Source of the DNA: Nitrospira defluvii
GTDB lineage: Bacteria > Nitrospirota > Nitrospiria > Nitrospirales > Nitrospiraceae
Direction of reading: 5' to 3'
DNA length: 64,000 bases
Assembly: GCA_000196815.1 (NCBI GenBank)
Contig: FP929003.1
Span: 1,821,501-1,885,500 of the forward strand
Of the stretch, positions 32,804 through 55,342 are shown one piece after another. Position 1 is the first letter of the stretch, and every line of letters begins with the position of its first letter. Both the position numbers and the translations under genes were made by a program. A model generated the notes under the pieces. The model was not told the origin of the DNA. It did no database searches and saw nothing but the letters and a program-made list of their open reading frames with translations.

Positions 32804-32845
32804 GGCTCCGCCGCTTGGTATCCAATCGAGGGCTGAGAAGATTAT

Positions 32846-34666
32846 ATGCGTAGCTGCCACCTGCAAGATGTTCAGGGTATGGCCATCTACAAGGCAAAGA
32901 TGAGCCAGGCATGGTGGGGACGTTCATGGTTTTTTAGCACCGCCCTGTTATTCGTGTTGGTATCTCCTGGCCTGTTGCTGCCGGATCGGGGCTCCGCGCA
33001 GGTCGGCCTGCCCCCTGTGATCGATCCTTCCGGTCGGTCCGGCCTTCCACCGCCGGTCGAACAGAAGAAGCCCTTACGGCCGGAGCAACCTCCTACGGAC
33101 ATCCTTCCTCCTGTTCAGCCTCCGCCCAGAGATCTTCGTGAGAAAGGCCCTGTGTTGCGGGTCTTGGTCCGGAAAATCCATGTGATCGGCAGTACGGTCC
33201 TGACGCAAGCCGAGTTACATGAGTTGACCGCGCCCTACGAAAACAGGGAGGTGACGACAGAAGATCTAGAGGAATTGCGAAGACAGATCACGCTGGCCTA
33301 TATCGACAAGGGCTATCCCAATTCAGGTGCGGTGCTTCCTGACCAAGCCGTGGTCGATGGCACGATCACGATGCAGGTGGTGGAGGGGAGGCTCAGTGAC
33401 GTCAAAATTCACGGCACCAAATGGTTTCGTACCTCCTACCTCCGCGACCGGATTGAGCTGAGCGCCGGGCCTCCCTTCAACATGAACCCGCTGCGGGACC
33501 GGCTGCAGTTGCTCTTGCAGGACGACCGGGTGGAGCGTTTGAACGCCGAACTCAAACCGGGCGCAGTTCCCGGAGAGGCCATTCTGGATGTCGCGGTGCA
33601 GGAGACAAACCCCGTCCGGGCCTTTGTCGAGTACAACAACTACATCAACCCGACCGTCGGTGAAAACCAATTGCGCGGGACGGTGGCCCATCGCAATTTT
33701 ACGGGCCGTGGCGATGTGCTGAGTATGAGTTTCGGCGCGTCGGGGCAGGCGTCCCCCGCGAAGATCGGCGTGTTCCCGGCAGTGGATGCGTCCTATGCGA
33801 TTCCCCTCAACCGATACGACACCACCTTCTTTGCCGGCTACCGGTTTTTCAAGTTCAAAGTGGTGGAAGATCCGTTTCGACCGCTCGATATCAAAAGCGA
33901 GACTCAGATCTTTACCCTATCGCTACGCCAGCCGGTCTATCGCACGCTGAATGACGAGGTGGCCATCGCACTGGTGGGCGAATACGAGCAGAACGCGAAC
34001 AGTCTCCTTGGAACCCCATTCGACTTTGTGAACGGCATGAAGAACGGCTTCGGCAACGTCGCGGCGCTCCGCTTTATTCAGGAATGGACTCATCGCACGG
34101 CGGAGTCCGTGTTCTCTGTACGCTCTCGTTTTTCCACCGGAGTTGATGTGCTGGGGGCGACTGTGAACGGCGCGCCGGGAGCGGCGGACGGTCAGTTTTT
34201 TTCCTGGCTCGGGCAGGCGGAATGGTTGAAGCGGTTTGAATCGCGGATCGAGATACTCAATTTTCTGAATATGCAGTTGGCAAATGACCGTCTCTTTCCT
34301 CTGGAGCAAATGGCGGTGGGAGGACGATATAGCGTCCGTGGGTATCGAGAGAACACGCTGCTTCGCGACAACGCCTTCGTGTACCAGTTTGAGACCCGCT
34401 TTCCTGTGTGGAGTTCCAGTGAAGGGTTTCCGTACGTGCAGTTCTGTCCCTTCGCCGATGTCGGCCATTCCTGGTCTGCCAAGGGTGCAAGCGGCGATCC
34501 GCAAACGTTGGCGAGCGTGGGTGCCGGGTTTCGATTCAATATCACCACGGTCGCAAACCTGAATGTGTATTGGGGACGCCGCCTCGTGATGAATAACGTG
34601 TCGAACCCCCATAACAGCATGCAAGATGAAGGGGTGCATATACAGTTTGTGCTCAACGTGATGTAG
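32846..34666 (+). CDS. TpsB outer membrane transporter (ShlB/FhaC/HecB family)
   Basis: A 606-residue two-partner secretion translocator. Signal segment (about 28-50), a Pro-rich linker (VDxx...PPPVEQKKPLRPEQPP), then POTRA domains (about 100-250; VRKIHVIGSTVLTQAEL and VVEGRLSDVKIHG). A 16-stranded barrel (about 255-606) follows, with the conserved GRYSVRGY motif near 490, the family's barrel/loop-6 signature. It would secrete the neighbouring TpsA proteins. Several in-frame ATGs (32846, 32879, 32900) precede the signal; none has a strong ribosome binding site, so the exact start is uncertain. It is the only TpsB in the window for at least three TpsA genes. Confidence 0.93.
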   Translation: MRSCHLQDVQGMAIYKAKMSQAWWGRSWFFSTALLFVLVSPGLLLPDRGSAQVGLPPVIDPSGRSGLPPPVEQKKPLRPEQPPTDILPPVQPPPRDLREKGPVLRVLVRKIHVIGSTVLTQAELHELTAPYENREVTTEDLEELRRQITLAYIDKGYPNSGAVLPDQAVVDGTITMQVVEGRLSDVKIHGTKWFRTSYLRDRIELSAGPPFNMNPLRDRLQLLLQDDRVERLNAELKPGAVPGEAILDVAVQETNPVRAFVEYNNYINPTVGENQLRGTVAHRNFTGRGDVLSMSFGASGQASPAKIGVFPAVDASYAIPLNRYDTTFFAGYRFFKFKVVEDPFRPLDIKSETQIFTLSLRQPVYRTLNDEVAIALVGEYEQNANSLLGTPFDFVNGMKNGFGNVAALRFIQEWTHRTAESVFSVRSRFSTGVDVLGATVNGAPGAADGQFFSWLGQAEWLKRFESRIEILNFLNMQLANDRLFPLEQMAVGGRYSVRGYRENTLLRDNAFVYQFETRFPVWSSSEGFPYVQFCPFADVGHSWSAKGASGDPQTLASVGAGFRFNITTVANLNVYWGRRLVMNNVSNPHNSMQDEGVHIQFVLNVM

Positions 34667-34696
34667 GGAAAGAGCCCGAGCCGCTGCTAAGTACTG

Positions 34697-35539
34697 CTAT
34701 TGTCGAGGGAAAGGGGAGGACACTGTCCCTGAGTAGGGTTCTCCCTGTTGGATGCGACGCAGGTACGGCTGACTGGTTGCGAGCAGAGCCTTCTCACCGG
34801 GCGGAGCGTTGGTCGCGAGTTTGAGCCGGATCAGACAGCCTTGTTGTGAGGTGACCGGAGAAAGCAGGCGAATGGACCATTTCATGCGCAGATTGTCTTC
34901 CCAACAGGTCCTCGAGTCTTCCTGGCAAGCTGGTTGTTGTAAACCGTAACTGACCGTCGTCACTCGCTTCTCTTCTACTCGCATCTCCTGCAATCGACGC
35001 TCAACATCCAACGCCCATTCTCGGCCTATCAGAAAGCTGTATGCTTCTGTCCCGCGCTCATCGCAATAGGCCTCCAGTGTCAGATGCGCCATCGGATTTC
35101 GATCAAGGAGCAGGGCTGTCGAGGCCAGGAGCTCTGCTGCTTCTGCCGCCACGGTGGGATGGTCGTCGGCTAGGTAGAGATCGCCGAGCACGGTGGTTCC
35201 GGTTCCTGAATGAAGGGCGTTCTTTGTGCGGGCAGGCGTGATGTCGCCCGCTCTCGTGCCGGCTACAGGACTGTCTTCCACCGTCGCCACGAGCGGCCCG
35301 GTTTCGACCCGTGGAAAGTATCCGAATTCTTCGCCCGTGAGGTTTGGTGTGACTCGTTCTTTTGGGGAAAGATATGTAAGGGAAGGCCATGAGGAGTGGG
35401 CGGTCGTTGACAGCCCTACTGGGAGGAGCTCTGCTGCCAGAGACAAACGAGCCTCACTGATGGAGTTCGAAAGAATGAACAGACCAATCACAATAGAGAT
35501 GCGGAAGGCAAGCATGGCAATCGGAAAGGGATTGGTCAT
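34697..35539 (-). CDS. Exported OmpA/Pal-like domain protein
   Basis: A 280-residue protein with an N-terminal signal peptide (about 8-30). The segment around residues 125-220 matches the OmpA/Pal peptidoglycan-binding fold: LEAYCDERGTEAYSFLIG, then an ALDVERRLQEM helix and VTTVSYGLQQPAC. It probably binds peptidoglycan in the periplasm. The N-terminal 110 residues and the tail (about 230-280) have no recognised family. It lies convergent with tpsB (30-bp gap) and 198 bp downstream of the CHAT gene on the same strand. Confidence 0.7.
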   Translation of the reverse strand: MTNPFPIAMLAFRISIVIGLFILSNSISEARLSLAAELLPVGLSTTAHSSWPSLTYLSPKERVTPNLTGEEFGYFPRVETGPLVATVEDSPVAGTRAGDITPARTKNALHSGTGTTVLGDLYLADDHPTVAAEAAELLASTALLLDRNPMAHLTLEAYCDERGTEAYSFLIGREWALDVERRLQEMRVEEKRVTTVSYGLQQPACQEDSRTCWEDNLRMKWSIRLLSPVTSQQGCLIRLKLATNAPPGEKALLATSQPYLRRIQQGEPYSGTVSSPFPRQ

Positions 35540-35737
35540 CAGATTTTATGAAGCGCACGGCTCCGTCGGCAGGGGAGATCACGTGCCACGCAAGCAGCAT
35601 CGCTCTCCATTAACTATAGCAGGCGGTTTTCAGCTGGCTAGGAAGGGGAACGAAGGGAGAAGAGTCCCTCTATGCTCGTGGAGGAGCATCAGACTGAGAA
35701 AGGATGTCGATGCAGGAAGTCTGGTCGTGAGGTCGAG

Positions 35738-38317
35738 CTACAACCAATTGTTAATCAACAGAAACGGCGCCCACAAGCCAGGATGGGCTCGCTCGGGATT
35801 CTTCAGCAGCGTGAGCTGGGCCTGTTGCAACGCGACGGCCTTCGAGGCGGCCGGGTCTTGGAGATTCTTGTAGAACTCCGCGATGAGCTCGGCCGTGGCT
35901 TCGTCATCGATAAACCAGAGGGTCGCCAAGGCACTTTTCGCCCCGGCCTTGATTGCCATCCCAGCCAGACCGAGGGCCGCTCGATCGTCACCTGCCGCGG
36001 TCTCGCAGGCACTCAACGTCAATAATTCGAGAGGAACAGTGCGCGCCTCGAACATTCCCACGAGATGGCTCAGTCGGTCCATGGTAATGCGGTCGTCGAA
36101 CGTAAGCACAAAACTCTTCGTGACGTCGCTTTCAACCTTGCCGTGGGACGCAATATGGATCATGTTGAATGGCTGTTCATTGAGGTCATGTTCGACCTTC
36201 CCGGCGCGAAATTCCTCATTCACTACCTGCTTTCCACCGTAAATAGCCTGGACCGCCTTTAATTCGTCGCCCACATAGGGCAAGGCCGGAAATCCCTGCA
36301 CCGATTCGGTCAGCCCCATGGAGAACAAGCGGATCTGCTTCCGGTTGAGCGGTCGTGGATCCGTGAGCGTCAATCCCGGTGTGGTGGCCACCGCATAGCG
36401 CTCGATCAAGAATTTCGTGCCGTCATGCAGCGGAGCCATTGGAATGGTCCTGAGGGGCCCGTCCGGCACAAAGACCAGGGTGGTGATGTGCGCGTTGGCA
36501 AGGTCTGTTTCCATGGGGTGAATCAACCACTGATAGAGCTTCTGGGCATGGGGACGATAGGCATTGTTGGAACGGTCTTCGAGGCCGAGTCTAAAGGCGC
36601 GGATTTCCTCCGTCAGCTCTTCGCCGGTGACCGGCACGATGAATTGCTTCAGGCCGGACGGCATGCTCACGAGCAGCTCCATGCGGTCTGCCAGGATAAT
36701 GGGATAAACAATAGCGGTGGACTTGGATTCTTGGGCGACCGCCGTACTCGTCGAGCGGGCCGTCGCGACACACTCGTCTCGAAAATAGTCTTGCATCTCC
36801 GCCGCTTTATAGAGCTCGACCGTGTCCTGCGCCTGCCCAAGCAGCTGCTGACGGGCCGCAAGGTCTGGCGTTGACGAGGCGCGTTGCAGGAGCAGATCCG
36901 ACAGCTCAAAGAACAGGTTGCCGGTCGTCTCGCGGAAGGAAAATCGGCGATTCTGGCCGCCCACCATGAACTCCGACCGGATGGGTTGCAACGTTTCAAT
37001 TGCTCGCTGGTAGGCAGAAATGGCGTCGTTGATCTGGCCTTTGCTCCGCAGCAGGCGAGCGGTCTGCCAGTGCCATCGGTATAGGGACTCCGGAGAGCTG
37101 ACCCGTTGAGCGGCGAGCAGGGCTCGCCTGGTCAGGTCCAGCGCCTCATCCGTGCGATGCTGCATCTCGTACAGATGACCTAAGTAGCCCCACCCGTAGG
37201 ATTCGTTCCGTGAATCACCGATCTTTGTCGCGACCTGGATCGCATTCCAGTAGGCCTCTGCTGCCTGCCGAATGGCCGGCTCACCTATGTCGGCCTGTTT
37301 TTCGAGGACGGAGGGCGCTGCGCCGGGCTCCTTGGGTGAGGGTGGTTCTTTGGACGGAGTTTCTGTTGCACCTGGAGGCTGGGCAGGAGGAACAGCCCCG
37401 GGCAGGAGTTCAACTCCCCGCGAACTCTTCGCGGCCAGCAGCGTCCTTCGCATATCGGTTCTCGCCGAGACATTGGTGGGGCGAGGTCGGAACATATCTT
37501 CGTACGCGTCCCCAAGGCTCAGCCACGCATTCGCCTTCTCAAACGAATCCGGCATGGAGACGATTTCCTGCGCGGCGATATCTAAGCGTGCCTTTGCCGT
37601 GGTGAGCGAGCCTTCCTGAATCGTGGCTCGGCCGGCATTGATCAGGGTGATGGTTGTCAACGCCGGTTGATGGGAGGCTTTTGCCAGGATGGAAGATTCG
37701 GTATAGGCCGCCACGGCAGAAGAGTATCGTCCGTCGGCTGTGAGAATGTTGCCCTGATCGTTCAGCATGGTCGCGGCAAGGGCCGAATTGTCGAGTGCTC
37801 TGGCCGAAGCGAGACCCTCTTCGATTGCATGCAACGCCTGCTCATTGTCCCCCAGGGCAAATAGGACAGAACCGAGCCGCCCCTCCACAATGGCTTTGAG
37901 GAGCGGATCTCCAATTTGATCCGCGAGTTTGCCGGAATCAACAAGGATCGATCCCGCTTCCTTAAAATGTCCGGTTTGATAGAGCGCTTGCGTGAGATTT
38001 ACTTGTGCCTTGATTTGCTCACGTGTTTTGCCATCCCGTTCATAACGCCGGCCGGCCTCGGTCCAATACTGCATGGCTTGGCTGAAGGCCCCTTGTTGGT
38101 AGGCGGATTGTCCCTGCTCCATCAGCTTCTCGGGAGTGACCGTTTCTTGTGCGAGCGCGTCGGTTGTCCAGGCCTGACCGGCCACTACGATGCAGACAAA
38201 GAAAATCGCAAGAAGCGTCATGGTTTTCATTTCGGGTATCACGTACGATGCCTGGCTGTGAGCGAGTGTCGGTAGGAGTCTATGGTGAACGGTTGGAGGC
38301 TCAAGCACCTTGGCCAT
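35738..38317 (-). CDS. TPR-CHAT caspase-like protease 1, exported
   Basis: An 859-residue protein. A hydrophobic signal-like segment lies at about 33-50 (LLAIFFVCIVVAG), then TPR helices (about 60-460; YQQGAFSQAMQYWTEAG is typical), then a C-terminal CHAT domain (about 560-859), a caspase-clan cysteine protease fold. The catalytic pair is visible: His725 in IASHG and Cys771 in LSACET. Start 38317 is chosen because AAGGAGG lies 7 bp upstream, although it puts 29 residues before the signal segment; ATG 38230 would give a conventional signal peptide but has no ribosome binding site. Substrate unknown. Cyanobacterial TPS loci also carry CHAT genes, which supports a functional link with the TpsA/TpsB genes. 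Confidence 0.88.
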   Translation of the reverse strand: MAKVLEPPTVHHRLLPTLAHSQASYVIPEMKTMTLLAIFFVCIVVAGQAWTTDALAQETVTPEKLMEQGQSAYQQGAFSQAMQYWTEAGRRYERDGKTREQIKAQVNLTQALYQTGHFKEAGSILVDSGKLADQIGDPLLKAIVEGRLGSVLFALGDNEQALHAIEEGLASARALDNSALAATMLNDQGNILTADGRYSSAVAAYTESSILAKASHQPALTTITLINAGRATIQEGSLTTAKARLDIAAQEIVSMPDSFEKANAWLSLGDAYEDMFRPRPTNVSARTDMRRTLLAAKSSRGVELLPGAVPPAQPPGATETPSKEPPSPKEPGAAPSVLEKQADIGEPAIRQAAEAYWNAIQVATKIGDSRNESYGWGYLGHLYEMQHRTDEALDLTRRALLAAQRVSSPESLYRWHWQTARLLRSKGQINDAISAYQRAIETLQPIRSEFMVGGQNRRFSFRETTGNLFFELSDLLLQRASSTPDLAARQQLLGQAQDTVELYKAAEMQDYFRDECVATARSTSTAVAQESKSTAIVYPIILADRMELLVSMPSGLKQFIVPVTGEELTEEIRAFRLGLEDRSNNAYRPHAQKLYQWLIHPMETDLANAHITTLVFVPDGPLRTIPMAPLHDGTKFLIERYAVATTPGLTLTDPRPLNRKQIRLFSMGLTESVQGFPALPYVGDELKAVQAIYGGKQVVNEEFRAGKVEHDLNEQPFNMIHIASHGKVESDVTKSFVLTFDDRITMDRLSHLVGMFEARTVPLELLTLSACETAAGDDRAALGLAGMAIKAGAKSALATLWFIDDEATAELIAEFYKNLQDPAASKAVALQQAQLTLLKNPERAHPGLWAPFLLINNWL

Positions 38318-42832: not shown

Positions 42833-43498
42833 ATGTGCAATGAATCGTCTAGGCCATATACTCGTCTGTTTCGATTTCTTGCAGTTGGTGGCCTCGCAAT
42901 CATGGTATTTGGGGGATCGATGCTTTTCGTGGATGAAAAAGCTGAGGCTCAGTCGCAAGCAGCTGGAACCGCGCAAAATGCCGTCGGCTCGCTTCTCATT
43001 GTGAGAAAAGATGGAATTCAAGAGACCCTGCGCGGTAAGGGGGCGGTGTCCCTCTATGAGTTCGATGTGCTGAAGACAGAGCCGGGCAACCAAGCAGAGA
43101 TTCTCCTGGACGGCGCGGTTCAAGTCTACTTGAACGAAGGGACCGAGGTGATGGTGCTCTCTCGATGGGAGAAGCATCGTCCCCTGATCAGAATTCTGCG
43201 GGTCAAGAAAGGCGAGTTACTCGTCAAGATCGCAGAAGGGCCCAAGCCATTGGAAGTCGAAACGCCGGTAGCCAGCGCGCGAGTGAAACAAACCGAATTC
43301 GACATCAAGGTGCAAGAAGATGGAGAAACGACCCTGCGGGTGCTGGAAGGAGTGGTGGAGTTTGGAACGGCTTTCGGCACCTGTCCTATTCGCACGGGCA
43401 CCGTCAGCTACGGTGTTCGGGGGAAGAAATGTACCAAACCGAAAGAGGAGGATTATGCTGCGGCGCTGGACTGGGCAAAGGAACTGGCAAGGAAATGA
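42833..43498 (+). CDS. Small exported FecR-domain protein
   Basis: A 221-residue protein with a signal segment (about 14-38) and a FecR-type beta domain (about 45-170). The domain shows NAVGSLLIVRKDG, LKTEPGNQAEILLDG, LRVKKGELLVKIAEG and a VETPVASARVKQTEFDIKV strand. There is no anti-sigma helix region as in the iron-signalling FecR, so it is a stand-alone FecR-fold domain, perhaps a periplasmic binding or scaffold protein. It converges with the TPR-CHAT 2 gene only 4 bp away. Confidence 0.8.
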   Translation: MCNESSRPYTRLFRFLAVGGLAIMVFGGSMLFVDEKAEAQSQAAGTAQNAVGSLLIVRKDGIQETLRGKGAVSLYEFDVLKTEPGNQAEILLDGAVQVYLNEGTEVMVLSRWEKHRPLIRILRVKKGELLVKIAEGPKPLEVETPVASARVKQTEFDIKVQEDGETTLRVLEGVVEFGTAFGTCPIRTGTVSYGVRGKKCTKPKEEDYAAALDWAKELARK

Positions 43499-43502
43499 AT
43501 CG

Positions 43503-46500
43503 TCACTGGCGTCCTTCTCCAACTAGAAAAAATGCCGCCCACGCAAAAGGATGAGCAAAGTAGGCATGCTCTGGATTCGAGGTTGCTTCTGCCATGACCG
43601 CCAGCATTCCTTGACGAAGAGCCTGCGCCGGGGTGTGCGAACTATTTCCTGCATAGTATTTAAAGGTTTCGGTCATGAGAAACTGAGTCGCTCGATCGTC
43701 CACGCTCCATTGCGATACCAACAGGGCTTTCGCCCCGGCAAAGAAAAACGCTCGCGCCAAACCCGTTAAATTATCCCCGCTATATTCACCTCCTGCAGTA
43801 TTACAAGCCGAGAGAATCACCCAAGTCGTTCTGGCAAGATTCAAATGAAGGATGTCCTCTAGCGAAAGCAGTCCGTCATCCTCATCTGTTGGAGAAGAGG
43901 GGGGAGTCAACACCAGCGCCGGCTGTGTCAAGCCCTGAAGATCACCAGCAAGAAGCCCATGAGTAGCAAAGGACAGCACCTCAGCAGAGCCGAGGCGACC
44001 GGATCGATTGAGTTGACCGACTTGGGTTTCCGTCGCCTCTTCCGACAGAAAGACATGCTCATGGGGCGACACGTTCATAGCGGCAGCAACGGCAAGCAGC
44101 TCTTCGCGAGTGCCGGGCAGGCGATTGAGCAGCTCGAGCTCACTACGTGCAACCCGCACACCTCGATGCTTCGGTATGGATCCTCCGCGCGAAGCTCCAG
44201 TGCCTTGGAGTACCGGGTCACCGAACCCGATAAATCGTTCCTGATGAGCAGTCCGGACCCGAGAGGTCTCTCTCAAGAGTTTTAGTACCGAAGCGGAGGG
44301 AACGACGGTCAGGGTATAGGCAGATCCGAGCCATGGAAGATCTTTATAACGGAGCAGATCTTTAACGGACACCATGCCCCCTGTTCGAGAAAAGTCCGCT
44401 AGTTGTTCGGGGGAACGGTCTGTCTGGTCGCGTATCAAGACGGCAAGCGGGAGGGGCAGAAGCACCGAATCGGGAATCAGGATGAGATGCTCAATTTGCT
44501 GAAGCTGAGAGGAAACCGGTCCAACAAGTAATCGATACAGTTCGCGTGCCGCATCGATGGCAAACGGTGGAAGGCCTGCCACATCTGGAGACGACGTGAA
44601 TGCAGGTGTCAGACTCGTTCTGACTCGATTGACCAGCTCAGCCAATTTGGGTCGGGAGATGAAACTCTCTCGGTAGAGAGGAGGTTGTCCCGATCGCACC
44701 AGCCAGATGCAGACGCGGTCGGGAAGCGTCAACCAACTGATGAGCGCTTCATTTCCCGTAAGCAACGATTGCGTGCCAGATATTGTCGCCGGCTTCGGCA
44801 AGGCAAGTTCGGCATAGCGAGGCGACATACGGTCCAGTTCTTTCGCGTCTGACTCGATTGCTGCCTGGACCGTATAAAGCTCCTGCTTTGCGCTATCGAG
44901 TTCATTTTCGTTTCGCTGTTCAGCTGATTGGGAGTACAACTCGCTTAACTTGGTCCACACTACCTGTCGCTGACGGCGCAAATTATCAAGTTGGCGAGCC
45001 AGCTGGTGCGCGTCTCCTTCAATCGACTGTCTTGCCATGGCTCGCGCTACGGCGGCTTGGATCATCCAGCCGCGAGCTTGTTCGGCAACGAGAAAGCTAT
45101 CGGCGATAGCAGTCGGCGGAGTCGTATCCAGAGAGGGCTTATTGGTCATGGTGGCTAAGAGCAATTCATAGTCATACAGACCCTTCAGTTGTTGGGCCCA
45201 TACCCGAGCCTGAGTGGCCTCATCCAAGTTCTGGTTTGCAGAAATATGCATGAGGGTGATATGGCGCGCGCGTTCATAGTGTTCACGTGCTGCTTTGATT
45301 TTGCCTTGCGCATGAAGGCCCCGAGCTAGATCGAACAGGCTAGCCGCCACGTCCGGATGCGTTGGGCCTAGCAACGCTTCCCTGATTCGAGTGGCCCGTT
45401 CGAAGTGATCTGTCGCTTTCCTCAGATCACCACGCTGAACTTCCAGATAACCTAGGGAGGTTAAGGTTTCGGTGGAGAAGACATGTCCATGGCCAAGTGC
45501 ATGTTCTTGGATCGCAAGCGCCTCTTCGAATAAAGATTTGGCCTCCTCAGGTTTATTCGCCTGGGCCGCCAACTGTCCCAGGGCATTCAATGTCACGGCG
45601 ACAAATGGATGCTGCGGGCCAACAGTGGATTTTTGTATGTGAAGGGCTCGCTCGAAGGACTGCTGTGCCTCGCGCATGTTTCCCAGCGCTCGGTGCATTG
45701 TCCCGATTTCGTTCAAATCACCGGCGATTTCAGCATGATTGGCACCGAGGGATGCTTCATTGATCTGCAATGCACGTTGAAATAGGGGCAGTGCGCCCCG
45801 GTAGTTACCTGTCACGGCCTCGAGCATTCCCATTCGGGATAACGTTCGCGCAACGTGGGGATGCGAGGCCCCGAGAATTCGCTCCCGAATCGAGAGCGAG
45901 CGTTCCAGGGGGACCCGAGCCTCGGCGAATTCGCCCTGCCGGCGCAAGATATTCCCGTAATAATTGAGTCCCATCGCGAGATCCAGTGGCTCATCACGTT
46001 CCAAAGGATCCAGAATGGACAACGCTCGTTCCATCAAAGAGCGAGATTGCTGAAGGTCGCCAAGTTGGCTCACGACAATCGAAAGGTGAATGAGGCTCAC
46101 TGCGACCTCGGGTGCAGTGGGGCTGAGGGCCGTTTCCCGGATGTGGACCGCGTGCTCAAGCAGCGGCCGCGCTTCGGCGAATTGCCCTCCGGCGTACAGC
46201 GTACGGGATAGGTTGGTCAGGCTTTCTGCGATGGCGGAATGAACCGGAGGAAACGCCCCTTGGCGAATTTTGAGGGCGCGCTCAAGTAAAGGACGAGCCG
46301 CCTTATAGTCGGATTCCTGGAGGATAATCCCTAGGGTATTTAGACTTTCCGCAATGAGCGGATCCGTCGGACCGAGAGCCGCCTCTCGAAGTGTCAAGGC
46401 CTCCTTTGCAAGAGGCCGCGCGTCAGCGAATTTTCCAGCGTGGTGGAGCCTGAGCGCGTCACGGTTCAGTTCATCGGCATGCGCGAGTTGCTCGATTGTG

Positions 46501-46628
46501 ACCGGGTGGGAATCGGATACAAGGATCCCTTGACTAGCGCCCCATGCCGGATAGGTGGAGAAAGCTGCTGAGCCCACCAAAATCGCAGCAACGATGGAAG
46601 CGTGAAGCGGTTGTGGCTTGAACCACAT
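43503..46628 (-). CDS. TPR-CHAT caspase-like protease 2, exported
   Basis: A 1041-residue protein (from ATG 46628; an upstream ATG at 46640 and TTG at 46655 are alternatives). Signal peptide (about 10-30), then ten or more Kinesin-light-chain-like TPRs (about 50-460; repeats of A-x-x-L-x-x-L-G and ALxIxE), a helical coiled region (about 540-620), and a CHAT domain (about 680-1041). The catalytic dyad is intact: His890 in FATHG and Cys942 in LSACNT. It lies 60 bp downstream of a TPR-beta-barrel gene on the same strand, so the two are probably co-transcribed. Substrate unknown; peptide or toxin processing are alternatives. Confidence 0.88.
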   Translation of the reverse strand: MWFKPQPLHASIVAAILVGSAAFSTYPAWGASQGILVSDSHPVTIEQLAHADELNRDALRLHHAGKFADARPLAKEALTLREAALGPTDPLIAESLNTLGIILQESDYKAARPLLERALKIRQGAFPPVHSAIAESLTNLSRTLYAGGQFAEARPLLEHAVHIRETALSPTAPEVAVSLIHLSIVVSQLGDLQQSRSLMERALSILDPLERDEPLDLAMGLNYYGNILRRQGEFAEARVPLERSLSIRERILGASHPHVARTLSRMGMLEAVTGNYRGALPLFQRALQINEASLGANHAEIAGDLNEIGTMHRALGNMREAQQSFERALHIQKSTVGPQHPFVAVTLNALGQLAAQANKPEEAKSLFEEALAIQEHALGHGHVFSTETLTSLGYLEVQRGDLRKATDHFERATRIREALLGPTHPDVAASLFDLARGLHAQGKIKAAREHYERARHITLMHISANQNLDEATQARVWAQQLKGLYDYELLLATMTNKPSLDTTPPTAIADSFLVAEQARGWMIQAAVARAMARQSIEGDAHQLARQLDNLRRQRQVVWTKLSELYSQSAEQRNENELDSAKQELYTVQAAIESDAKELDRMSPRYAELALPKPATISGTQSLLTGNEALISWLTLPDRVCIWLVRSGQPPLYRESFISRPKLAELVNRVRTSLTPAFTSSPDVAGLPPFAIDAARELYRLLVGPVSSQLQQIEHLILIPDSVLLPLPLAVLIRDQTDRSPEQLADFSRTGGMVSVKDLLRYKDLPWLGSAYTLTVVPSASVLKLLRETSRVRTAHQERFIGFGDPVLQGTGASRGGSIPKHRGVRVARSELELLNRLPGTREELLAVAAAMNVSPHEHVFLSEEATETQVGQLNRSGRLGSAEVLSFATHGLLAGDLQGLTQPALVLTPPSSPTDEDDGLLSLEDILHLNLARTTWVILSACNTAGGEYSGDNLTGLARAFFFAGAKALLVSQWSVDDRATQFLMTETFKYYAGNSSHTPAQALRQGMLAVMAEATSNPEHAYFAHPFAWAAFFLVGEGRQ

Positions 46629-46688
46629 GGTTTGATCCATCCGATGTACGAACAAACTGGCGGCAGAATTGGTAGTGACTTTATTTCA

Positions 46689-48356
46689 TCAATAGACCCA
46701 GGTCACCAAGCCAGTCGCCACATTCTTTGTGTAATCGTAAATAGCCACATTCGACACGGCGGTGGTGTGAGAGAATTGGGCCGTGATGAGCCAGTGTTCG
46801 CTCAATGCTTTGGTCAGCTGGATTAAGTGGTCGTATTGCGTGTCCTTGCGTTTGGATAAAGCAGCGTCTTTGTCCAGAAACAGCGTTTGAGGGTTTTGAT
46901 AATCCCGGAAATGCAGGCTAAAGGTATAGCCTGCATGCATATCCCAGGGAAGGCGTACCTGGAGTCCGGCCTCTAAGCGATGCCCGTTGTAAGAGAAGGC
47001 TGTGCCTTCCGTTCGTTCGATGTCATATTCGTATCCCACGCGCAGGACGGTCCGATCACTTGCGAAACGAAATGAATGGAACAAGCCAACCATCGTGTTA
47101 TAGCCGTCGCGTTGCTCGGAAGGGAATCGCGGATCGAATTCGCCAAAGAAATTCTTCTTTTGGTATCGGCCAAGCGTGGTCGTCATATGACCGACGCTGC
47201 CCAATAAAGGCACCATCGTATTGGGTTCCACAATCGTCGCGGAGAGCGTTGGGCTGTGCCGGGAAAGAAACCCGTTAAAATCGAGAAACACATAGTCGTA
47301 GGTATAGTCTAATCCCAATTGAAACGGCATGTCGGCTAGAGTCGTTCGATAATAGCTATGGAGTCCGGGTTGATGGCTCTGAATGTTGAAGCGATCCAAG
47401 TTTCCTGCATAGTTGGAGGTCTGCAGAAACGAATAGCTCACAGAACTCTCAAAGCCTTGGTGACGGAGGAAGGAATATTCTGCATTCAGTGTAGCGATGG
47501 CGCCAGGAGAATTTGTCCGGCGCTCTCGAAACTGGTCAACCAATGATCTCACCGCCGGGTCACAGCGGTCACAACGATCCGGATTGATGGCCACGTTGTC
47601 ATCGTAGTAGCCGCCTACGCTGATGCTGGCGCGTAGGCGCCGTTCTTCCCGTTGAACTCCCTGCCGAGCCGCCAGGCTTTCGCTGAGCCTGATCGCCGTC
47701 TGCGTTAACGGATCCACCGCCCGACTACGTTGTAAATCTTGGAAGGCAGCAGTAGCTTCTTGTGTCATTCCCGATACCCCTAAGGCCAGTCCACGGTAAA
47801 AGGTCGCCAGACGTTGGAGATTGGGATCGGTGACATTGCCCCGATCAAAGGCTTCAATCGCCGGCTTGTACTCTTTCTTTCTGTAGCGTGTTACCCCGAC
47901 ATAATAACCGAGATTATCCATACCGGGGTCTTGCTGATAGGCCTGCTCAAAGAGAGGAGAGGCTTCGTCATAGCGATTAGCTGCGAGGTAGGCCACGCCG
48001 AGTTGATACTGGACATTCACATCGGTTGGATGCAGTTGCCTGGCTGCCTCAAGCGGCTCGATTGCGTCATCCGGGTGCTGGAGAGCCAACTGGGTCAAGC
48101 CTAGATAATACAGTCCACGCGCGTTGTGTGGATCATGCGTACGGGCACGGGTGAGGAGGTTCAGCGCTTCATCATATCGCTTCGATTCATACGCGAGGAC
48201 TGCTTGCGCCACCAAGACGTTGCCTTCCGACGGCTGCGCTTGCGCAGAGCCTGGAAGGTACACCTGCATTCCGATGAGCATCACGAAAAGGAGCGTTGCT
48301 GAAATACATGTATTTATTTTTTTCGTTTGTCGAGTCCCTTGACCTCGGAAAGCCAT
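46689..48356 (-). CDS. TPR protein with C-terminal outer membrane beta barrel
   Basis: A 555-residue protein with a signal peptide (about 18-41, ending AQA). TPRs occupy about 45-230 (AYESKRYDEALNLLTRA, DDAIEPLEAARQLHP, YDEASPLFEQAYQQDP). A barrel of about 280-555 follows, with alternating strands and a final aromatic residue (VTWVY), typical of outer membrane insertion. The layout resembles exopolysaccharide or surface-protein exporters such as PelB, PgaA or Slam, but no specific match is recognised. ATG 48356 has AAAGGAGG 8 bp upstream. It is divergent from the FecR giant genes (161 bp) and upstream of CHAT 2. Confidence 0.82.
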   Translation of the reverse strand: MAFRGQGTRQTKKINTCISATLLFVMLIGMQVYLPGSAQAQPSEGNVLVAQAVLAYESKRYDEALNLLTRARTHDPHNARGLYYLGLTQLALQHPDDAIEPLEAARQLHPTDVNVQYQLGVAYLAANRYDEASPLFEQAYQQDPGMDNLGYYVGVTRYRKKEYKPAIEAFDRGNVTDPNLQRLATFYRGLALGVSGMTQEATAAFQDLQRSRAVDPLTQTAIRLSESLAARQGVQREERRLRASISVGGYYDDNVAINPDRCDRCDPAVRSLVDQFRERRTNSPGAIATLNAEYSFLRHQGFESSVSYSFLQTSNYAGNLDRFNIQSHQPGLHSYYRTTLADMPFQLGLDYTYDYVFLDFNGFLSRHSPTLSATIVEPNTMVPLLGSVGHMTTTLGRYQKKNFFGEFDPRFPSEQRDGYNTMVGLFHSFRFASDRTVLRVGYEYDIERTEGTAFSYNGHRLEAGLQVRLPWDMHAGYTFSLHFRDYQNPQTLFLDKDAALSKRKDTQYDHLIQLTKALSEHWLITAQFSHTTAVSNVAIYDYTKNVATGLVTWVY

Positions 48357-48517
48357 TACTGTAGCCTCCTTTCCCGAAATATAGATCGCATTACTACGTA
48401 CTATAGCGTGGTAAATATCAGCGAAAGCCGATGCCCTTGTATAGAACTCACGTATGCCTGTCAAGCACAGATTCACCTCGCGACCGTGAATTCATTTCCC
48501 AGCCGAGGAGTACGATC

Positions 48518-51500
48518 ATGCCGATATCTCCTTTCTTCCGTTTAATTGTGATGACCCTCATCGTGTTGCACCTTGTGGGGCCTGGACTCCTCTGGGCGAT
48601 GGAGCAACGGGGGGTGGAGGTGCGCCGCCACAATCAAGCGGTCGTGTCGGGCATTCGCGGGAGTGCTCTCACTGTATTGGCTGGGGAGACCACGAGACCG
48701 GTGCGCTTTAGTGAACCGATTGCTTTTGGTGAACAAGTGCGGACGGCCCGCGACAGTTCCGCTGAGGTCCTGATCAATAATCAAGCCGTCGTGACCATGT
48801 TGAGCGAGTCCGATGTGGCGTTAGAAGAACGAGACGGCCATACCGTCGTGCATTTATCAAAAGGGAGCGTGTTGGTGTCGGCGGCGGCCAGTGCCTTACG
48901 GGAGGGGCAGACCGTCATCGTAGAAACGCCCGGCGCGCAGCTCTCGACCCGGGGGGGGCTTCTCAAAGCCACGGTCGGCACGGAGCCCCGGCAGACGAAA
49001 TGGAAGCAGGAGTCTGAGGGAGGGGTTCAGTTGGTCTCGTATTCCCCGATCTACCCGGTCCAGACGGAGGCGATGGTCAACGAACGTTTTGAAGTCTATG
49101 AAGGGACGGGGACGATCGGGACTCGAACGGCAGGCGCGACCCCACTCATCATAGAACCGGGTCAGTCGGTGCAGATGACCGGGGGAACACTGGGAACTCC
49201 GGGTGGGATCGAAGGCGCCTTAGCCGGGCCCGGACCAATGGTGCTTGCGGCAACGCGCCATGCCGCGACCCCGCAGGCGGGACTCGAGCTAGTCTCGGCA
49301 CGCCAACTGCAGCAGGTGAGTGCCCTGCAACAGGCTCTCTACGGCGATCCGGATGCGACGGTCGAAGGGAAGGAGAGCCAGAGCGGTACGATTATCTCCA
49401 CCCTATTTGGAACCAACCCGACCCAGGCGCCGCCACCGGATTCGAACAATCCGACCGCGAGTCTATTCGGCACTGGGAGCCCGTACACTGCGGCGCTACT
49501 GAATGCGATCAATCGCTCCGGGGCAGGCGTGGTCAATGACTCAACTGACTCTAGCGGATTTCTCAATGTAATTGCTGTTGGGAGAGCAGGCCCATTGGTG
49601 GAGACCCCCATCGCGGTTGAAGGCGGCCTGGGTCTACTCACAATTGGTGGCCGATCGTCGGGAAATGGATTAGAAAGAATACGAAGTGCGTTTGGGGGGT
49701 CGGAACTTCTGAGTGTTGATGGAGGTGACGTCAACGATGCGCCACACGGTGGGCGTGCTCCCATTAGTACGTTAGCGGCCCGGGGATTGACCGATATTGT
49801 GGCGGTAAAATCTCCTCCCGTGGTAATTCCCATCAATGATGCTGCAAAAGCGACGATTGATCCAATTGGCACGAGATTAACTGCGGACGGCAGGGCACTA
49901 TCTGCCCTCCCTTATGAGGTCACCATCGTTTCGATTAAACCCTTGATTTTTGATTCTGCAACCGGTCAGCTAATCGTGGGATCTGGAACAGGAAAGCCGT
50001 TCCTCGGTCAGGTAGATACAACTTTTGACGTGGTTAATCTTCAATCCCGAGTAAAGCAAACAGTAACAGTAAACACTTCGCCTGGCGGCACTATTGATAG
50101 TGCCGGGAAACTTACGAAGTTGAGCACGTTCCTTAATCTTCCCGAGGGACTTACGACCATAGTCTTAAACGGTGGCGGTGGAGAACTTAAAGATGGGCAG
50201 AAATTTACGTTTGCTGACCCTCCTAGCGCTTCTACAAGAGCAATCGATGGAAACCGCGGGGTAGTACTTACTGCCAGACCAGCCGGAACAGAAACTGCAA
50301 ATTTCCCTGATCCATCAATTGTGATTATTCCAGGAAAGCAAGACAACCGAGCGGTGCTGGAAGGAAGAGGCGCCTCTTCGTTGTTGGATACTGAAGGCAA
50401 ATCAACGGAAGGCCGCGCTACGGCGGATTTTATTCTGTCCGACTTCAGTTCGAGGTCCGATGGGAAGGTCTGCAGTTTTTGTATTTCTCGACCAGGAGCT
50501 ACATTGCCATTTGATGAACGAGCAAGTTTTATAGATGCAGCCATTTCGGCCCGCAGCTCATCGTCGGCGGGATTACCTATTTTTGATGCGGTAGGTTCAG
50601 TCAATGACCGTACGGTTGAGCTTACCGCAGGAGTGGTGTTGACAGAGAAGTCATCTTTCTCGGTTCGAAGTGAAACAACCCGTCGGGACTATACGTATCG
50701 CGAAGATTCCTTCGGCAATGTCGTCGGCACTAAGGGCATCGTTACGTTGCCACCAAAGCCAAGCAACACCAAGGCTTATTTCCAACGACTGGACGGAACT
50801 CCAGAATTTGAAGGGTCTGTGGCGGCAATTGTGGCTAACGAGAACAATTCTGCCTTCGTCAAAATTCATGACCGTGTGCTCGCTGTATTGGATGGGAGTT
50901 CCATTACTCCTGACGTGGTCAACGGAAGAGAGCTTCGGACCTCCTTACTTAGCGTGCTCGATAGCCAATTGATTGGCCCCGAGACACCCAGTAGTACGGA
51001 CGGGAAGCTCCATCGAGAGCTGGTAAAGGGAAAGGCGGAAATCTCCCCCTTACTGGAGGTCGAGGACTCAGCGGTTCGAACCACTTCCGCGGTGGTCGTG
51101 CGGGCGACTGCTTCCGGCATCGGGCCTATTGCCTTGGACCGTGCCTTATTGGATGCGAGTTCTCCCATTTTGACAGTAACGAATAGTCAATTCACCGCCA
51201 CCGGGCATCTGATTGATCTGGCAGGGGTGGGGCCCAGCAAAGAGCTGCTGCGGGCCAATCTCGTCCCGGGCGACGCGTTGGTCCGACTGAACGGGAAGAC
51301 CATGGATGTCGCGGGTAATTTTTTGAATCTGGCGAGGACAAGTGCAACCGTGAATGGCTACCTCTTTTCTCTGGCGAACGCTGGCACCTTAAACATCGGC
51401 GGGACGCTCTTGAGCCTTACGGGGAACTCCATCTTGCGATTGAATAGTGATGCCTTCGGAATCTTTGATCACACCGCCAATACATTTAAGATAACCAACA

Positions 51501-51745
51501 CATTGTGTGCGAGTGGAGAATGCGGGCTTCTGACGGATCATCTCAATGCGCCGTTCCAGTCATCCAACGGTAAAGCCATCCAAGTGGCAGGGAGCAAAAG
51601 CAATGTACAGCTTCCTCAGGGGTTCACGCCCTTCCGGGCACCGTCTGGGACCACTTCCTCTGTGGTATTGGATGAACATGCGGCGCTATTGCATATCGAG
51701 CCCGGCTCTGAGTTACACATCAGCGTGCCGCTGCCCAAAAAATAA
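48518..51745 (+). CDS. Giant exported FecR-domain protein A
   Basis: A 1075-residue protein. Signal peptide (about 8-28), then a FecR domain (about 30-200): GEQVRTARDSSAEVLINNQ, VALEERDGHTVVHLSKGSVLV, VETPGAQLSTRGGLLKATV. A Gln/Pro-rich segment follows, then a variable centre (about 335-780) containing a CxxC pair (KVCSFC). A C-terminal domain of about 295 residues ends in HISVPLPKK. ATG 48518 is chosen because GAGGAG lies 7 bp upstream. The next gene is a paralogue with near-identical ends. FecR domains of this type occur in stand-alone envelope proteins; its partner is unknown. Co-directional with genes at 51805 and 54839. Confidence 0.82.
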   Translation: MPISPFFRLIVMTLIVLHLVGPGLLWAMEQRGVEVRRHNQAVVSGIRGSALTVLAGETTRPVRFSEPIAFGEQVRTARDSSAEVLINNQAVVTMLSESDVALEERDGHTVVHLSKGSVLVSAAASALREGQTVIVETPGAQLSTRGGLLKATVGTEPRQTKWKQESEGGVQLVSYSPIYPVQTEAMVNERFEVYEGTGTIGTRTAGATPLIIEPGQSVQMTGGTLGTPGGIEGALAGPGPMVLAATRHAATPQAGLELVSARQLQQVSALQQALYGDPDATVEGKESQSGTIISTLFGTNPTQAPPPDSNNPTASLFGTGSPYTAALLNAINRSGAGVVNDSTDSSGFLNVIAVGRAGPLVETPIAVEGGLGLLTIGGRSSGNGLERIRSAFGGSELLSVDGGDVNDAPHGGRAPISTLAARGLTDIVAVKSPPVVIPINDAAKATIDPIGTRLTADGRALSALPYEVTIVSIKPLIFDSATGQLIVGSGTGKPFLGQVDTTFDVVNLQSRVKQTVTVNTSPGGTIDSAGKLTKLSTFLNLPEGLTTIVLNGGGGELKDGQKFTFADPPSASTRAIDGNRGVVLTARPAGTETANFPDPSIVIIPGKQDNRAVLEGRGASSLLDTEGKSTEGRATADFILSDFSSRSDGKVCSFCISRPGATLPFDERASFIDAAISARSSSSAGLPIFDAVGSVNDRTVELTAGVVLTEKSSFSVRSETTRRDYTYREDSFGNVVGTKGIVTLPPKPSNTKAYFQRLDGTPEFEGSVAAIVANENNSAFVKIHDRVLAVLDGSSITPDVVNGRELRTSLLSVLDSQLIGPETPSSTDGKLHRELVKGKAEISPLLEVEDSAVRTTSAVVVRATASGIGPIALDRALLDASSPILTVTNSQFTATGHLIDLAGVGPSKELLRANLVPGDALVRLNGKTMDVAGNFLNLARTSATVNGYLFSLANAGTLNIGGTLLSLTGNSILRLNSDAFGIFDHTANTFKITNTLCASGECGLLTDHLNAPFQSSNGKAIQVAGSKSNVQLPQGFTPFRAPSGTTSSVVLDEHAALLHIEPGSELHISVPLPKK

Positions 51746-51804
51746 TGGGTAAGCACTCTGTGTCAAGAAAACCTACGGCTCAATTTGGTCTGAGGAGGCG
51801 ACCT

Positions 51805-54800
51805 ATGATCACCAGGCACAATGGCTCTCGTGTAGCGGTGGGATTCTTGATCGTGTTGCACCTTGTGGGGCCTGGACTCCTCTGGGCGATGGAGCAACGG
51901 GGGGTGGAGGTGCGCCGCCACAATCAGGCCGTCGTGTCAGGTATTCGCGGAAGCGATCTCACGGTATCAGCGGGGGAGACGACAAGATCGGTGCGGTTTA
52001 GTGAACCGATTGTATTTGGTGAACAGGTGCGGACAGCCCGCGACAGTTCCGCCGAAGTGTTGATCAACAATCAAGCCGTCGTGACCATGTTGAGCGAGTC
52101 CGATGTGGCGTTAGAAGAACGAGACGGCCATACCGTCGTGCGTCTCACGAAAGGGAGCGTATTGGTATCGGCGGCGGCCAGTGCCTTACAGGAAGGGCAG
52201 ACCGTGATCGTAGAAACGCCCGGCGCGCAGCTCGCGACCCGAGGCGGTCTTTTCAAAGCCACGGTGGGCACGGAGCCTCGGCAAACCGAACGGAAGCAGG
52301 AGTCGGAGGGACGGGCACAGCTGGTCTCGTATGCTCCGGTCTACCCAGTGCAGACGGAGGCGATCCTCAACGAACGTTTTGAAGTCTACGAAGGGACGGG
52401 AACGATTGGGCCTCGGACGGCAGGCGCGACCCCGATCGTCATCGAACCAGGTCAATCGGTGCAGATGACCGGCGGGGCACTGGGAACTCCGGGTGGGATC
52501 GAGGGCGCCTTAGCCGAGCCTGGACCGGTGTTGCTTGCGGTGACGCACCATGCCGCAACTCCCCAGACGGGGCTCGATCTGGTTTCGCAACGGCAAATGC
52601 AGCAGGTGAGTGCCCTGCAACAGGCTCTCTACGGCGACCCCGATGCGGCAGTCGAGGGCAAAGAAGGCCAAAGCGGTACGATTATCTCGACCCTGTTTGG
52701 CACGAACCCGAACCAGGCCCCGCCACCGGATTCGAACAATCCGACCGCGAGTCTATTCGGCACTGGGAGCCCGTACAGCGCGGCGTTGCTCGCAGCCATC
52801 AATCGGCCTGGGTCCGGATTGGGTGATGATGGAGATGATACTGATGCTGGGCCTACAGTTGAGTCTGGCCTTTCGGTGACGGTGCGAGGTGGAGTTGGGC
52901 TATTGGCATTTACCGAAGGTCCTAACAAGGAATCCAGCGAGTTTAAAGCCTCGGAGTTGTTAATGGTGGATGGTGGTCTAGGTAAGGCTCCTCATAACGG
53001 ACGTCCGCCTCTTAGTACACTTGTGGCGAGAGGTATACAAGAATATGAAGTTCCAAACTTGGGCAATACATCGATTGCTATAGTTGATCCCTCTAAGCTC
53101 ACTTTTCAGCCGTATGAGCTCAAAATCACAGAAGCGCCACAGGTAATTCACGAAACCAAGGAGTTAAGAGATGGAAGGTTTCAGATTTTGAACAGTGTCT
53201 CTCAAGTCGTGCGAGCAGAGGGTCCGGTGAAGCTCGCTCCACGAGATGAATCTCCTGATCTGCTTCTCACAAGAATCGAAGCGACAGTTGATGGTTTAAA
53301 AGTGCTTAAATTTGGATTTCTCCTCGACCCACCAGACTCGACAATTCCCGCCGTTATTAAGTCCGTGCGAAACGCGAATGTTCAATTGCCGATACAGAAC
53401 TATAATCAAGATAACATTGCCGTCCAAACCAAACTCCAAACGGGCATAATCCAACAGGGAGGCGATACCCGACCCGTTGTCCCTGATCGATCTGGGACTT
53501 TTCCAGGCCTGGGGGTAGACACACGCGACTCTCGCTTACCGGTAGATGCTGTTGTGTCTGACTATATCTTGTCGGATTTTAGCTCCTTAGGCAGCGGTAG
53601 GATATGTACCAATTGCGACGTAAATGCAGGAATTCCCCAAAGCGGTGGATCCTATAGCTTTATAGACGCGCGCATTACTGCTAGGAGTAACGGAGAGTCC
53701 CATTCACCAATCCAGTTAGCCGGTGGAGTCGTATTGACTGACCGGTCGGCACTGACTGTCACCAATGCGATCACCCGTGTCTTCGACAAGCTCGGTATAG
53801 AGTTGCCCCCAGATTCTCCACCATTGAATGAACCTAGTCAGACGAGTACCTTCTTTCGTAACAAAGGGCTGTCACCAGCCTTTGACGGATCAGTAGCCGC
53901 CGTAGTGGGCAAAGAGAATCCTGCATTTCTTGAAATCCATGATCGTGTTCTTGCCGTTCTTGATGGCAGCTCCGTAAAGCCTGACGTGGTCAATGGACAG
54001 GAAATTGTTGTCTCCCTGCTTAGCGTGCTCGATAGTCAGTTGATCGGACCGGAGATTGCAAGTAGCACCGTCGGGAAGCTCCATCGAGAACTGGTAGACG
54101 GAAAGGCAGAAATCTCGCCCTTACTGGAGGTCGAGAACTCGTCCGTGCGAACCACGTCGGCAGTAGTCGTGCGGGCGACAGAGTCGGGCATCGGACGCTT
54201 TGCGTTGGACCGTGCCTTATTGGATGCAAGTTCTCCCATTTTGACAGTAACGAATAGTCAATTCACCGCCACCGGGCATCTGATCGATCTGGCAGGGACG
54301 GGGCCCAGCAAAGAGTCGCTGCGGGCCAATCTCGTTCCGGGCGACGCGTTGGTCAGACTGAACGGGAAGACCATGGATGTCGCGGGTAATTTCTTGAATC
54401 TGGCGAGGACCAGTGCAACTGTGAATGGCTACCTCTTTTCTCTGGCGAACGCAGGCACCTTAAACATCGGCGGGACGCTCTTGAACCTCACGGGGAACTC
54501 CATCTTGCGATTGAATAGTGATGCCTTCGGAATCTTTGATGCCACCGCCAATACGCTTAAGGTAACCAACGCATTGTGTGCGAGTGGAGAATGCGGGCTC
54601 CTGACCGATCATCTCAATGCGCCGTTCCAATCATCCAACGGTAAAGCCATCCAAGTGGCAGGGAGCAAAACCAATGTACAGCTTCCTCAGGGGTTCACGC
54701 CATTTCGCGCACCCTCGGGGACAACATCAACGGTGGTACTGGATGAACATGCGGCGCTATTGCGGATCGAGCCCGGCTCCGAATTACGCATCAGCGTACC

Positions 54801-54816
54801 GGTCGTGAAAAAATAA
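51805..54816 (+). CDS. Giant exported FecR-domain protein B (paralogue of A)
   Basis: A 1003-residue protein that matches protein A at nearly identical level over its first ~335 and last ~295 residues. The centre (about 337-710) is divergent and keeps only short shared blocks, for example DYILSDFSS and a CxxC pair (RICTNC). It has the same signal peptide, FecR domain and C-terminal domain. ATG 51805 has GAGGAGG 6 bp upstream; the frame also opens earlier at 51745, overlapping the previous stop. The gene follows protein A after 59 bp and is followed after 22 bp by the 167-residue gene, so a three-gene operon is likely. Confidence 0.83.
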   Translation: MITRHNGSRVAVGFLIVLHLVGPGLLWAMEQRGVEVRRHNQAVVSGIRGSDLTVSAGETTRSVRFSEPIVFGEQVRTARDSSAEVLINNQAVVTMLSESDVALEERDGHTVVRLTKGSVLVSAAASALQEGQTVIVETPGAQLATRGGLFKATVGTEPRQTERKQESEGRAQLVSYAPVYPVQTEAILNERFEVYEGTGTIGPRTAGATPIVIEPGQSVQMTGGALGTPGGIEGALAEPGPVLLAVTHHAATPQTGLDLVSQRQMQQVSALQQALYGDPDAAVEGKEGQSGTIISTLFGTNPNQAPPPDSNNPTASLFGTGSPYSAALLAAINRPGSGLGDDGDDTDAGPTVESGLSVTVRGGVGLLAFTEGPNKESSEFKASELLMVDGGLGKAPHNGRPPLSTLVARGIQEYEVPNLGNTSIAIVDPSKLTFQPYELKITEAPQVIHETKELRDGRFQILNSVSQVVRAEGPVKLAPRDESPDLLLTRIEATVDGLKVLKFGFLLDPPDSTIPAVIKSVRNANVQLPIQNYNQDNIAVQTKLQTGIIQQGGDTRPVVPDRSGTFPGLGVDTRDSRLPVDAVVSDYILSDFSSLGSGRICTNCDVNAGIPQSGGSYSFIDARITARSNGESHSPIQLAGGVVLTDRSALTVTNAITRVFDKLGIELPPDSPPLNEPSQTSTFFRNKGLSPAFDGSVAAVVGKENPAFLEIHDRVLAVLDGSSVKPDVVNGQEIVVSLLSVLDSQLIGPEIASSTVGKLHRELVDGKAEISPLLEVENSSVRTTSAVVVRATESGIGRFALDRALLDASSPILTVTNSQFTATGHLIDLAGTGPSKESLRANLVPGDALVRLNGKTMDVAGNFLNLARTSATVNGYLFSLANAGTLNIGGTLLNLTGNSILRLNSDAFGIFDATANTLKVTNALCASGECGLLTDHLNAPFQSSNGKAIQVAGSKTNVQLPQGFTPFRAPSGTTSTVVLDEHAALLRIEPGSELRISVPVVKK

Positions 54817-54838: not shown

Positions 54839-55342
54839 ATGAAGCAGGATGAATGGACGGAGGCAATGATTGCTCCCTTGAGGACAGTTCTAATTTGGCA
54901 CTGCATCGTCTTTTTTGCTGCCATGGCAATGTGGGCCAGCTCACCGGCGCGGGCCGATTCCGCTTATGATCCCATCATTGCTCATCTTGACTTTCTTGGA
55001 TATCAAAGCGATGTGGTTGATCAGGGTGTACGGGCACGACATTCCTCCAAGCTACATATCGTAGTGTCATACCAGAAAGGCGGCATTCTGGTTCAAACAG
55101 CTTTTCCAGGAAAAAGCCCTGAACAGGATGTGCCGAAACGCCATGCAGTGGCGAATGGAGTCAATCTGCGGACGCAAGTAGCGCGAGCGGTGTGGACGAC
55201 TGAGGGGCATTTATTTATGAGTGCCTGGATGCCGGGTTTGTATGACAAGACGCGGTTCGCACTATTTATGGAGGCGTGGGAACGCGATAGCCAGGTTCTG
55301 CGGGACGTGGCGTCTGATCTAAAACCCTATTTGAAAGAGTGA
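54839..55342 (+). CDS. Small exported protein of unknown function
   Basis: A 167-residue protein with a signal peptide (about 17-40, ending ARA). A soluble alpha/beta body follows (YDPIIAHLDFLGYQSDVVDQG, LHIVVSYQKGGILVQTAFPG, LFMSAWMPGLYDKTRFALFMEAWERDS). The body may have a YbjN-like or secretion-chaperone-like fold, but I do not recognise a family with certainty. GGAG lies 10 bp before the ATG. It is the last gene of the FecR operon. Confidence 0.65.
   Translation: MKQDEWTEAMIAPLRTVLIWHCIVFFAAMAMWASSPARADSAYDPIIAHLDFLGYQSDVVDQGVRARHSSKLHIVVSYQKGGILVQTAFPGKSPEQDVPKRHAVANGVNLRTQVARAVWTTEGHLFMSAWMPGLYDKTRFALFMEAWERDSQVLRDVASDLKPYLKE

What the first reader, a model, noticed from the sequence alone, without database searches (positions are those of the whole stretch)
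48518..54816. Tandem giant FecR proteins with near-identical ends and divergent centres
The first ~335 and last ~295 residues of the two proteins are nearly the same, with long identical DNA runs (for example around 51165-51230 and 54230-54300). The centres (about 49520-50850 and 52815-53930) retain only short blocks, including a CxxC pair. This pattern fits gene conversion of the ends with diversifying or cassette-swapped centres, as in antigenic or self/non-self recognition proteins.
Basis: partly seen in the sequence, partly recalled or inferred. Interest (0 to 1): 0.72.

Follow-up and report, generated by a model that had tools for sequence, protein, structure and literature searches.

The report
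Mosaic bacterial surface protein pair
Two neighbouring genes in a Nitrospira bacterium encode large, probably surface-exposed proteins whose ends are nearly identical but whose middles are very different and look much older, a pattern that recurs in related species and suggests that the middle is the part under pressure to differ.

Summary
The tandem genes at 48518-51745 and 51745-54816 share ends (88-92% aa) and differ in the centre (about 40% aa, many indels). At aligned identical residues the same codon is used in 74% (N end) and 84% (C end) of cases but 23% in the centre, the random level, so the centres have a different, apparently older history. Single-copy orthologs in two other Nitrospira species, and another ortholog pair, repeat this: ends as diverged as neighbouring genes, centres saturated. 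Conversion between the tandem copies is therefore not the whole story, and no silent donor cassettes exist in the genome. The centre also has low GC3 (0.43 against 0.66). The protein has a FecR-fold N-domain, a variable region (not modelled) and a C-terminal right-handed beta-helix. A divergent TPR-beta-barrel protein distantly similar to Slam/T11SS lies beside it at every locus where that side is present; a TPR-CHAT protein with intact His/Cys is usually near. Best reading: a surface recognition or adhesin protein with a diversifying centre, exported by the TPR-barrel. Function and selective agent are not shown, and a local mutation-rate effect is not excluded.

The parts
48518..51745 (+). 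giant A: Sec-type signal peptide by eye, FecR-fold domain, linker, variable centre, C-terminal beta-helix (1075 aa from this start; ORF opens at 48431)
51745..54816 (+). giant B, tandem paralog with shared ends (1023 aa)
48560..49500 (+). conserved N part of A (FecR domain and linker), about 88% aa to B
49520..50860 (+). divergent centre of A; GC3 0.43, synonymous sites saturated against B and orthologs; CxxC
50876..51742 (+). conserved C part of A (right-handed beta-helix by homology to the model of B)
51850..52790 (+). conserved N part of B (FecR fold in the model)
52815..53930 (+). divergent centre of B; GC3 0.44; CxxC
53944..54813 (+). conserved C part of B, beta-helix with pLDDT about 75-95 over most of it
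46689..48476 (-). TPR + beta-barrel outer-membrane protein, divergently transcribed, distantly Slam-like (Pfam SlipAM above cut-off); candidate exporter
43503..46655 (-). TPR-CHAT protease-like protein with conserved His/Cys pair and apparent signal sequence
42833..43498 (+). small FecR-domain protein next to CHAT, conserved with the cluster in G025 and G032
54839..55342 (+). 167-aa protein of unknown family that accompanies the giant in many loci

Best explanation
A and B are exported surface proteins: the N-terminal FecR-fold domain and linker are the part shared with short partners of the same TPR-barrel family and probably engage that barrel, the C-terminal beta-helix is a stalk or scaffold, and the centre is the exposed, diversifying face. 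In Nitrospira populations there are several old versions of the centre; recombination through the conserved ends moves them between otherwise ordinary gene copies, and in this genome two versions sit in tandem. The neighbouring TPR-CHAT protein may process or act on the giant or its ligand. Shown: the different histories of ends and centre, the conserved linkage, the predicted folds of the two ends. Inferred: surface location, export by the TPR-barrel, recognition role, role of CHAT, and that recombination of old alleles (not a local mutator) made the centre.
For: Synonymous saturation in centres against 53-84% same codon in ends for A-B, A-C, B-C and F-H. Ends and flanking genes have similar age between G000 and G025. 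The centre of J (another genus) is as close to A-D (40-53% in c1 and c4) as A-D are to each other, although its ends are only 33-38% alike; grouping J with B is rejected in the N part (p = 6e-7) but not in the centre (p = 0.41). Centre GC3 0.43/0.44 against 0.66/0.65 (p = 1.6e-13 and 2.5e-10). A TPR-barrel gene lies within about 5 kb of the giant in all 15 relatives' loci where that side is present. FecR fold Z 16.5, beta-helix Z about 12. SlipAM or TPR_Slam hits in the TPR-barrel family. The short FecR partner at the second TPR-barrel locus lacks centre and beta-helix.
Against: The centre tree of class-2 relatives keeps species and paralog groupings (F+H 99/97, E1+E2 89/88), with very unequal tip lengths (E1 1.84, E2 0.16; F 1.79, H 0), which fits locally accelerated evolution as well as swapped alleles. 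The A+B clade is not rejected in any region. Few centre codons are reliably aligned (33-39). The centre could not be modelled (pLDDT 31.5). No strain-level data. Surface exposure is not shown.
Confidence: 0.5

Rival explanations
1. The centre is a locally fast-evolving region (relaxed or diversifying protein selection plus a raised local mutation or indel rate), evolving vertically in place; no exchange of old alleles is needed.
For: Centre trees of class 2 keep lineage groupings with very unequal tip lengths. Many indels, and lower GC3 in the centre of nearly all family members.
Against: Synonymous sites at conserved codons are saturated in the centre but not in the ends of the same genes, which a change in protein constraint alone cannot give; a mutator would have to act on synonymous sites too. 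The only reverse transcriptase found in the genome lies about 0.9 Mb away, so a linked DGR-type mutator is not supported.
Confidence: 0.27
2. Old tandem duplication with recurrent intragenomic gene conversion of the ends only; the centres are simply the unconverted remainder.
For: A-B ends share slightly more codons (73-80%) than A-C (59-68%). The G074 pair has about 255 identical codons at the N end beside older sequence.
Against: Single-copy orthologs in G025 and G032, and the F-H pair, show the same contrast without a tandem partner. A+B is not favoured over other groupings in either end.
Confidence: 0.12
3. T6SS-linked self-recognition protein, comparable to the Ids system.
For: The cluster lies beside T6SS genes in the four genus genomes with context, and all five giant-bearing genomes of the genus are among the six of 29 that carry the T6SS-side gene p465.
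Against: Giants with the same partners occur in genomes of other genera and another family with no TssK hit. The site next to the T6SS holds a different gene in G021, so adjacency looks like a shared insertion site.
Confidence: 0.06
4. A FecR-type signalling protein (anti-sigma regulator) with an unimportant, decaying centre.
For: FecR domain and PupR-like fold.
Against: No FecI-type sigma factor or TonB receptor among the neighbours scanned; the FecR domain follows the signal peptide directly and is fused to a beta-helix; the centre keeps conserved blocks and an invariant CxxC and stays open in the relatives.
Confidence: 0.05

Closest known systems
Type XI secretion (Slam/DUF560) and its cargo (PMC8406197, PMC12282271)
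   Same: Adjacent genes for a TPR + beta-barrel outer-membrane protein and an exported protein with a variable part and a conserved part; Pfam SlipAM/TPR_Slam similarity of the barrel protein.
   Different: Known cargo carries a C-terminal (or central) eight-stranded beta-barrel; here the C part is modelled as a beta-helix, the N part is a FecR fold, and sequence similarity to Slam is weak.
FecR/PupR cell-surface signalling regulators
   Same: Fold of the N-terminal domain (6ovk Z 16.5; Pfam FecR).
   Different: No sigma factor or TonB receptor partner seen, no cytoplasmic anti-sigma part, fused to a large beta-helix.
Two-partner secreted filamentous haemagglutinins with a CHAT neighbour
   Same: Exported beta-helix protein next to an outer-membrane barrel and a TPR-CHAT protein; such a cluster lies at 30065-38317 in the same window.
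   Different: The giants lack a TPS domain and sit beside a TPR-barrel instead of an FhaC/ShlB protein.
Antigenically variable surface proteins with conserved ends (from own knowledge)
   Same: Conserved ends, diverged and recombining-looking middle.
   Different: No silent cassettes; variation seen between species and between two tandem copies, not yet within a strain.

Membership tests
Type XI secretion (Slam) | outer-membrane protein with N-terminal TPRs and DUF560/SlipAM barrel | tested here: inconclusive
   Window protein matches SlipAM at 26 bits (cut-off 22) over the last part of the barrel; 4 of 19 relatives match SlipAM, 8 of 19 TPR_Slam
Type XI secretion (Slam) | cargo with an eight-stranded beta-barrel domain | tested here: not met
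   C part is modelled with good confidence as a right-handed beta-helix; the centre is not modelled
FecR anti-sigma regulators | FecR-fold domain | tested here: met
   Pfam FecR E 2e-6 in B, marginal in A; 6ovk Z 16.5, rmsd 2.4 over 133 residues
FecR anti-sigma regulators | adjacent FecI-type sigma factor and TonB receptor | tested here: not met
   none among the neighbours scanned with Pfam
Two-partner secretion exoproteins | N-terminal TPS domain | tested here: not met
   Pfam finds only FecR in A and B, but finds TPS in the separate protein at 30065-32803
Silent-cassette antigenic variation | donor copies of the variable part elsewhere in the genome | tested here: not met
   only A and B match in the complete genome by protein profile; the DNA of A's centre finds only itself and chance matches
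Silent-cassette antigenic variation | variation of the expressed gene within a strain or species | not testable with these tools
   only one genome per species is held
DGR target proteins | linked reverse transcriptase | tested here: not met
   RT matches only at about 2.778 Mb, about 0.9 Mb away; adenine-specific change and template repeat not tested
T6SS self-recognition (Ids-like) | constant linkage with T6SS | tested here: not met
   giant-bearing genomes of other genera and of another family have no TssK match

The most novel reading that the evidence does not exclude
An undescribed surface recognition system of Nitrospirota: FecR/beta-helix giants with a pool of old, diversifying central alleles kept across species, exported by a new Slam-like TPR-barrel branch and acted on by an exported caspase-like CHAT protease.
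Probability: 0.25. Interest if true: 0.75.

Novelty: new variant of a known kind. Interest (0 to 1): 0.5.

Why it matters
Nitrospira are key nitrifiers that are hard to grow, and what their cells recognise or are recognised by (phages, neighbours, surfaces) is little known. A surface protein whose middle is diversified across species, with a defined candidate exporter and protease, would give a concrete handle on that, and might show a further branch of TPR-barrel secretion.

Tried and rejected
Cassette swapping between genera in class 2: looked likely from raw identities (E2-H, H-I), but the centre tree keeps F+H and E1+E2 and rejects E2+H (p = 4e-5) and H+I (p = 2e-4). Silent cassettes: none. 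Linked DGR: none. T6SS effector role: not general. Anti-phage defence families: only generic TPR matches, and a weak hit on the second CHAT protein. Pfam on the central insert: nothing credible. Structure of the centre: failed (pLDDT 31.5). PDB relatives by sequence for the giant: none. Plasmids and phages: no relatives. A weak LapA-retention match of the N part and a Foldseek row for a surface-anchoring domain (5ix9) were not followed; the former overlaps the FecR match. Papers: the searches run found nothing on this cluster. An attempt to fetch the annotated GenBank record failed, as it is not in the collections.

Full report
Setting. The window lies in a single-contig 4,317,083-bp genome; the size fits 'Candidatus Nitrospira defluvii' from my own memory, and relatives in GTDB are Nitrospira MAGs.

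Observation. The two ORFs exist as described. Aligned, they share an N part of about 310 residues at 88% and a C part of about 220-290 residues at 90-92%, while the centre is about 40% with many indels. Exact DNA runs reach 77 nt in the N part and 56 nt in the C part; in the centre no exact run exceeds 11 nt.

Two histories. If a centre were only changing faster at the protein level, codons of residues that stayed the same should be as similar as in the ends. They are not: at reliably aligned identical residues A and B share the codon in 74% (N), 23% (centre, random expectation 28%) and 84% (C) (similar; Fisher p = 2e-9). The centre also drops in GC3 from 0.66 to 0.43.

Relatives. A family search found single-copy orthologs in two species of the genus (G025 = C, G032 = D), more distant single copies in G043 (F), G017 (H), G060 (I), G015 (J) and a part in G144, and another tandem pair in G074 (E1, E2); more occur in a second family of the order. 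Between G000 and G025 or G032 the neighbouring genes share 55-80% of codons at identical residues; the giant's ends are in that range for A-C and B-C, while the centres are at or near saturation. D's N part is itself more diverged (64-66% aa, 42-48% of codons). F and H, from two other species of the genus, repeat the contrast (55%, 28%, 53%). So the unusual part is the centre, in single-copy genes too, and conversion between tandem copies is not needed to explain most of it. In G074 about 255 codons at the N end of the pair are identical in DNA next to much older sequence, a clear recent homogenisation, with the caveat that it is a MAG.

Old alleles or local mutation. J, from another genus, is as close to A-D in the centre as they are to one another, although its ends are only 33-38% alike. 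In the N part a B+J grouping is rejected; in the centre it is not, and the centre tree is star-like. This fits old central alleles carried on shared ends. Against it, the class-2 centre tree keeps lineage groupings with very uneven tips, so a locally raised rate remains possible. No silent cassettes and no linked reverse transcriptase were found.

Anatomy. AlphaFold2 on B gives a FecR-fold N domain (PupR Z 16.5), a low-confidence centre and a C-terminal right-handed beta-helix (tailspike- and lyase-like, Z about 12). A model of A's centre with the first helix rungs failed. Class 1 (A-D, J) has an extra central insert of about 120-150 aligned residues, the most variable part (21-35% identity), and an invariant CxxC.

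Neighbours. A TPR-beta-barrel gene, usually divergently transcribed, lies near the giant in all 15 relatives' loci where that side is present, a TPR-CHAT gene in most, a 167-aa protein in many. The TPR-barrel family is wider (42 of 175 family genomes), and its second copy in this genome pairs with a short FecR protein lacking centre and beta-helix, which suggests that the FecR part is what goes with the barrel. Distant Slam/T11SS similarity is seen in the barrel protein, but the cargo feature of T11SS is not met. The CHAT His and Cys are conserved in 10 of 10 sequences, and several start with an apparent signal peptide or lipobox (by eye).

Genomic site. In the genus the cluster sits between a PP2C/cyclase flank and T6SS genes. 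In G043 the site holds a class-2 cluster in the opposite orientation, in G021 a large WD40 protein with a TIR-like start (by eye). The site is thus a place of exchange; T6SS itself is absent from giant-bearing genomes of other genera.

Verdict. The pattern is real, repeated and unusual in its two histories. The most likely function is a surface protein with a diversifying centre; the exporter and protease roles are proposals. The general phenomenon is known; this family and its partners were not found described in the papers I could search.

Noticed in passing
window 30065-38317: A TPS haemagglutinin-like protein, ShlB/FhaC transporter, OmpA protein and a second TPR-CHAT protein form a cluster that parallels the giant/TPR-barrel/CHAT cluster.
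   Followed up: partly
L087 10625-14260 (G021): At the same T6SS-flanking site G021 carries a 1211-aa protein with a TIR-like start (by eye) and WD40 repeats instead of the giant cluster.
   Followed up: partly
L042 2887-12596 (G043): The T6SS-side gene p465 is 90% identical to the window's, but the adjacent giant cluster is a different class in inverted orientation.
   Followed up: partly
L073 7423-10382 (own genome, about 1.40 Mb): A second TPR-barrel gene is divergently paired with a short 362-aa FecR protein; similar pairs occur in other genomes of the genus.
   Followed up: partly
L043 7337-11719: The giant of G015 continues past the usual C end into a long repeat-rich beta-helix-like stretch and is cut by the contig end.
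   Followed up: no
window 48632-48850: The N part of giant A weakly matches the LapA retention module (NCBIfam E 6e-4, below cut-off).
   Followed up: no
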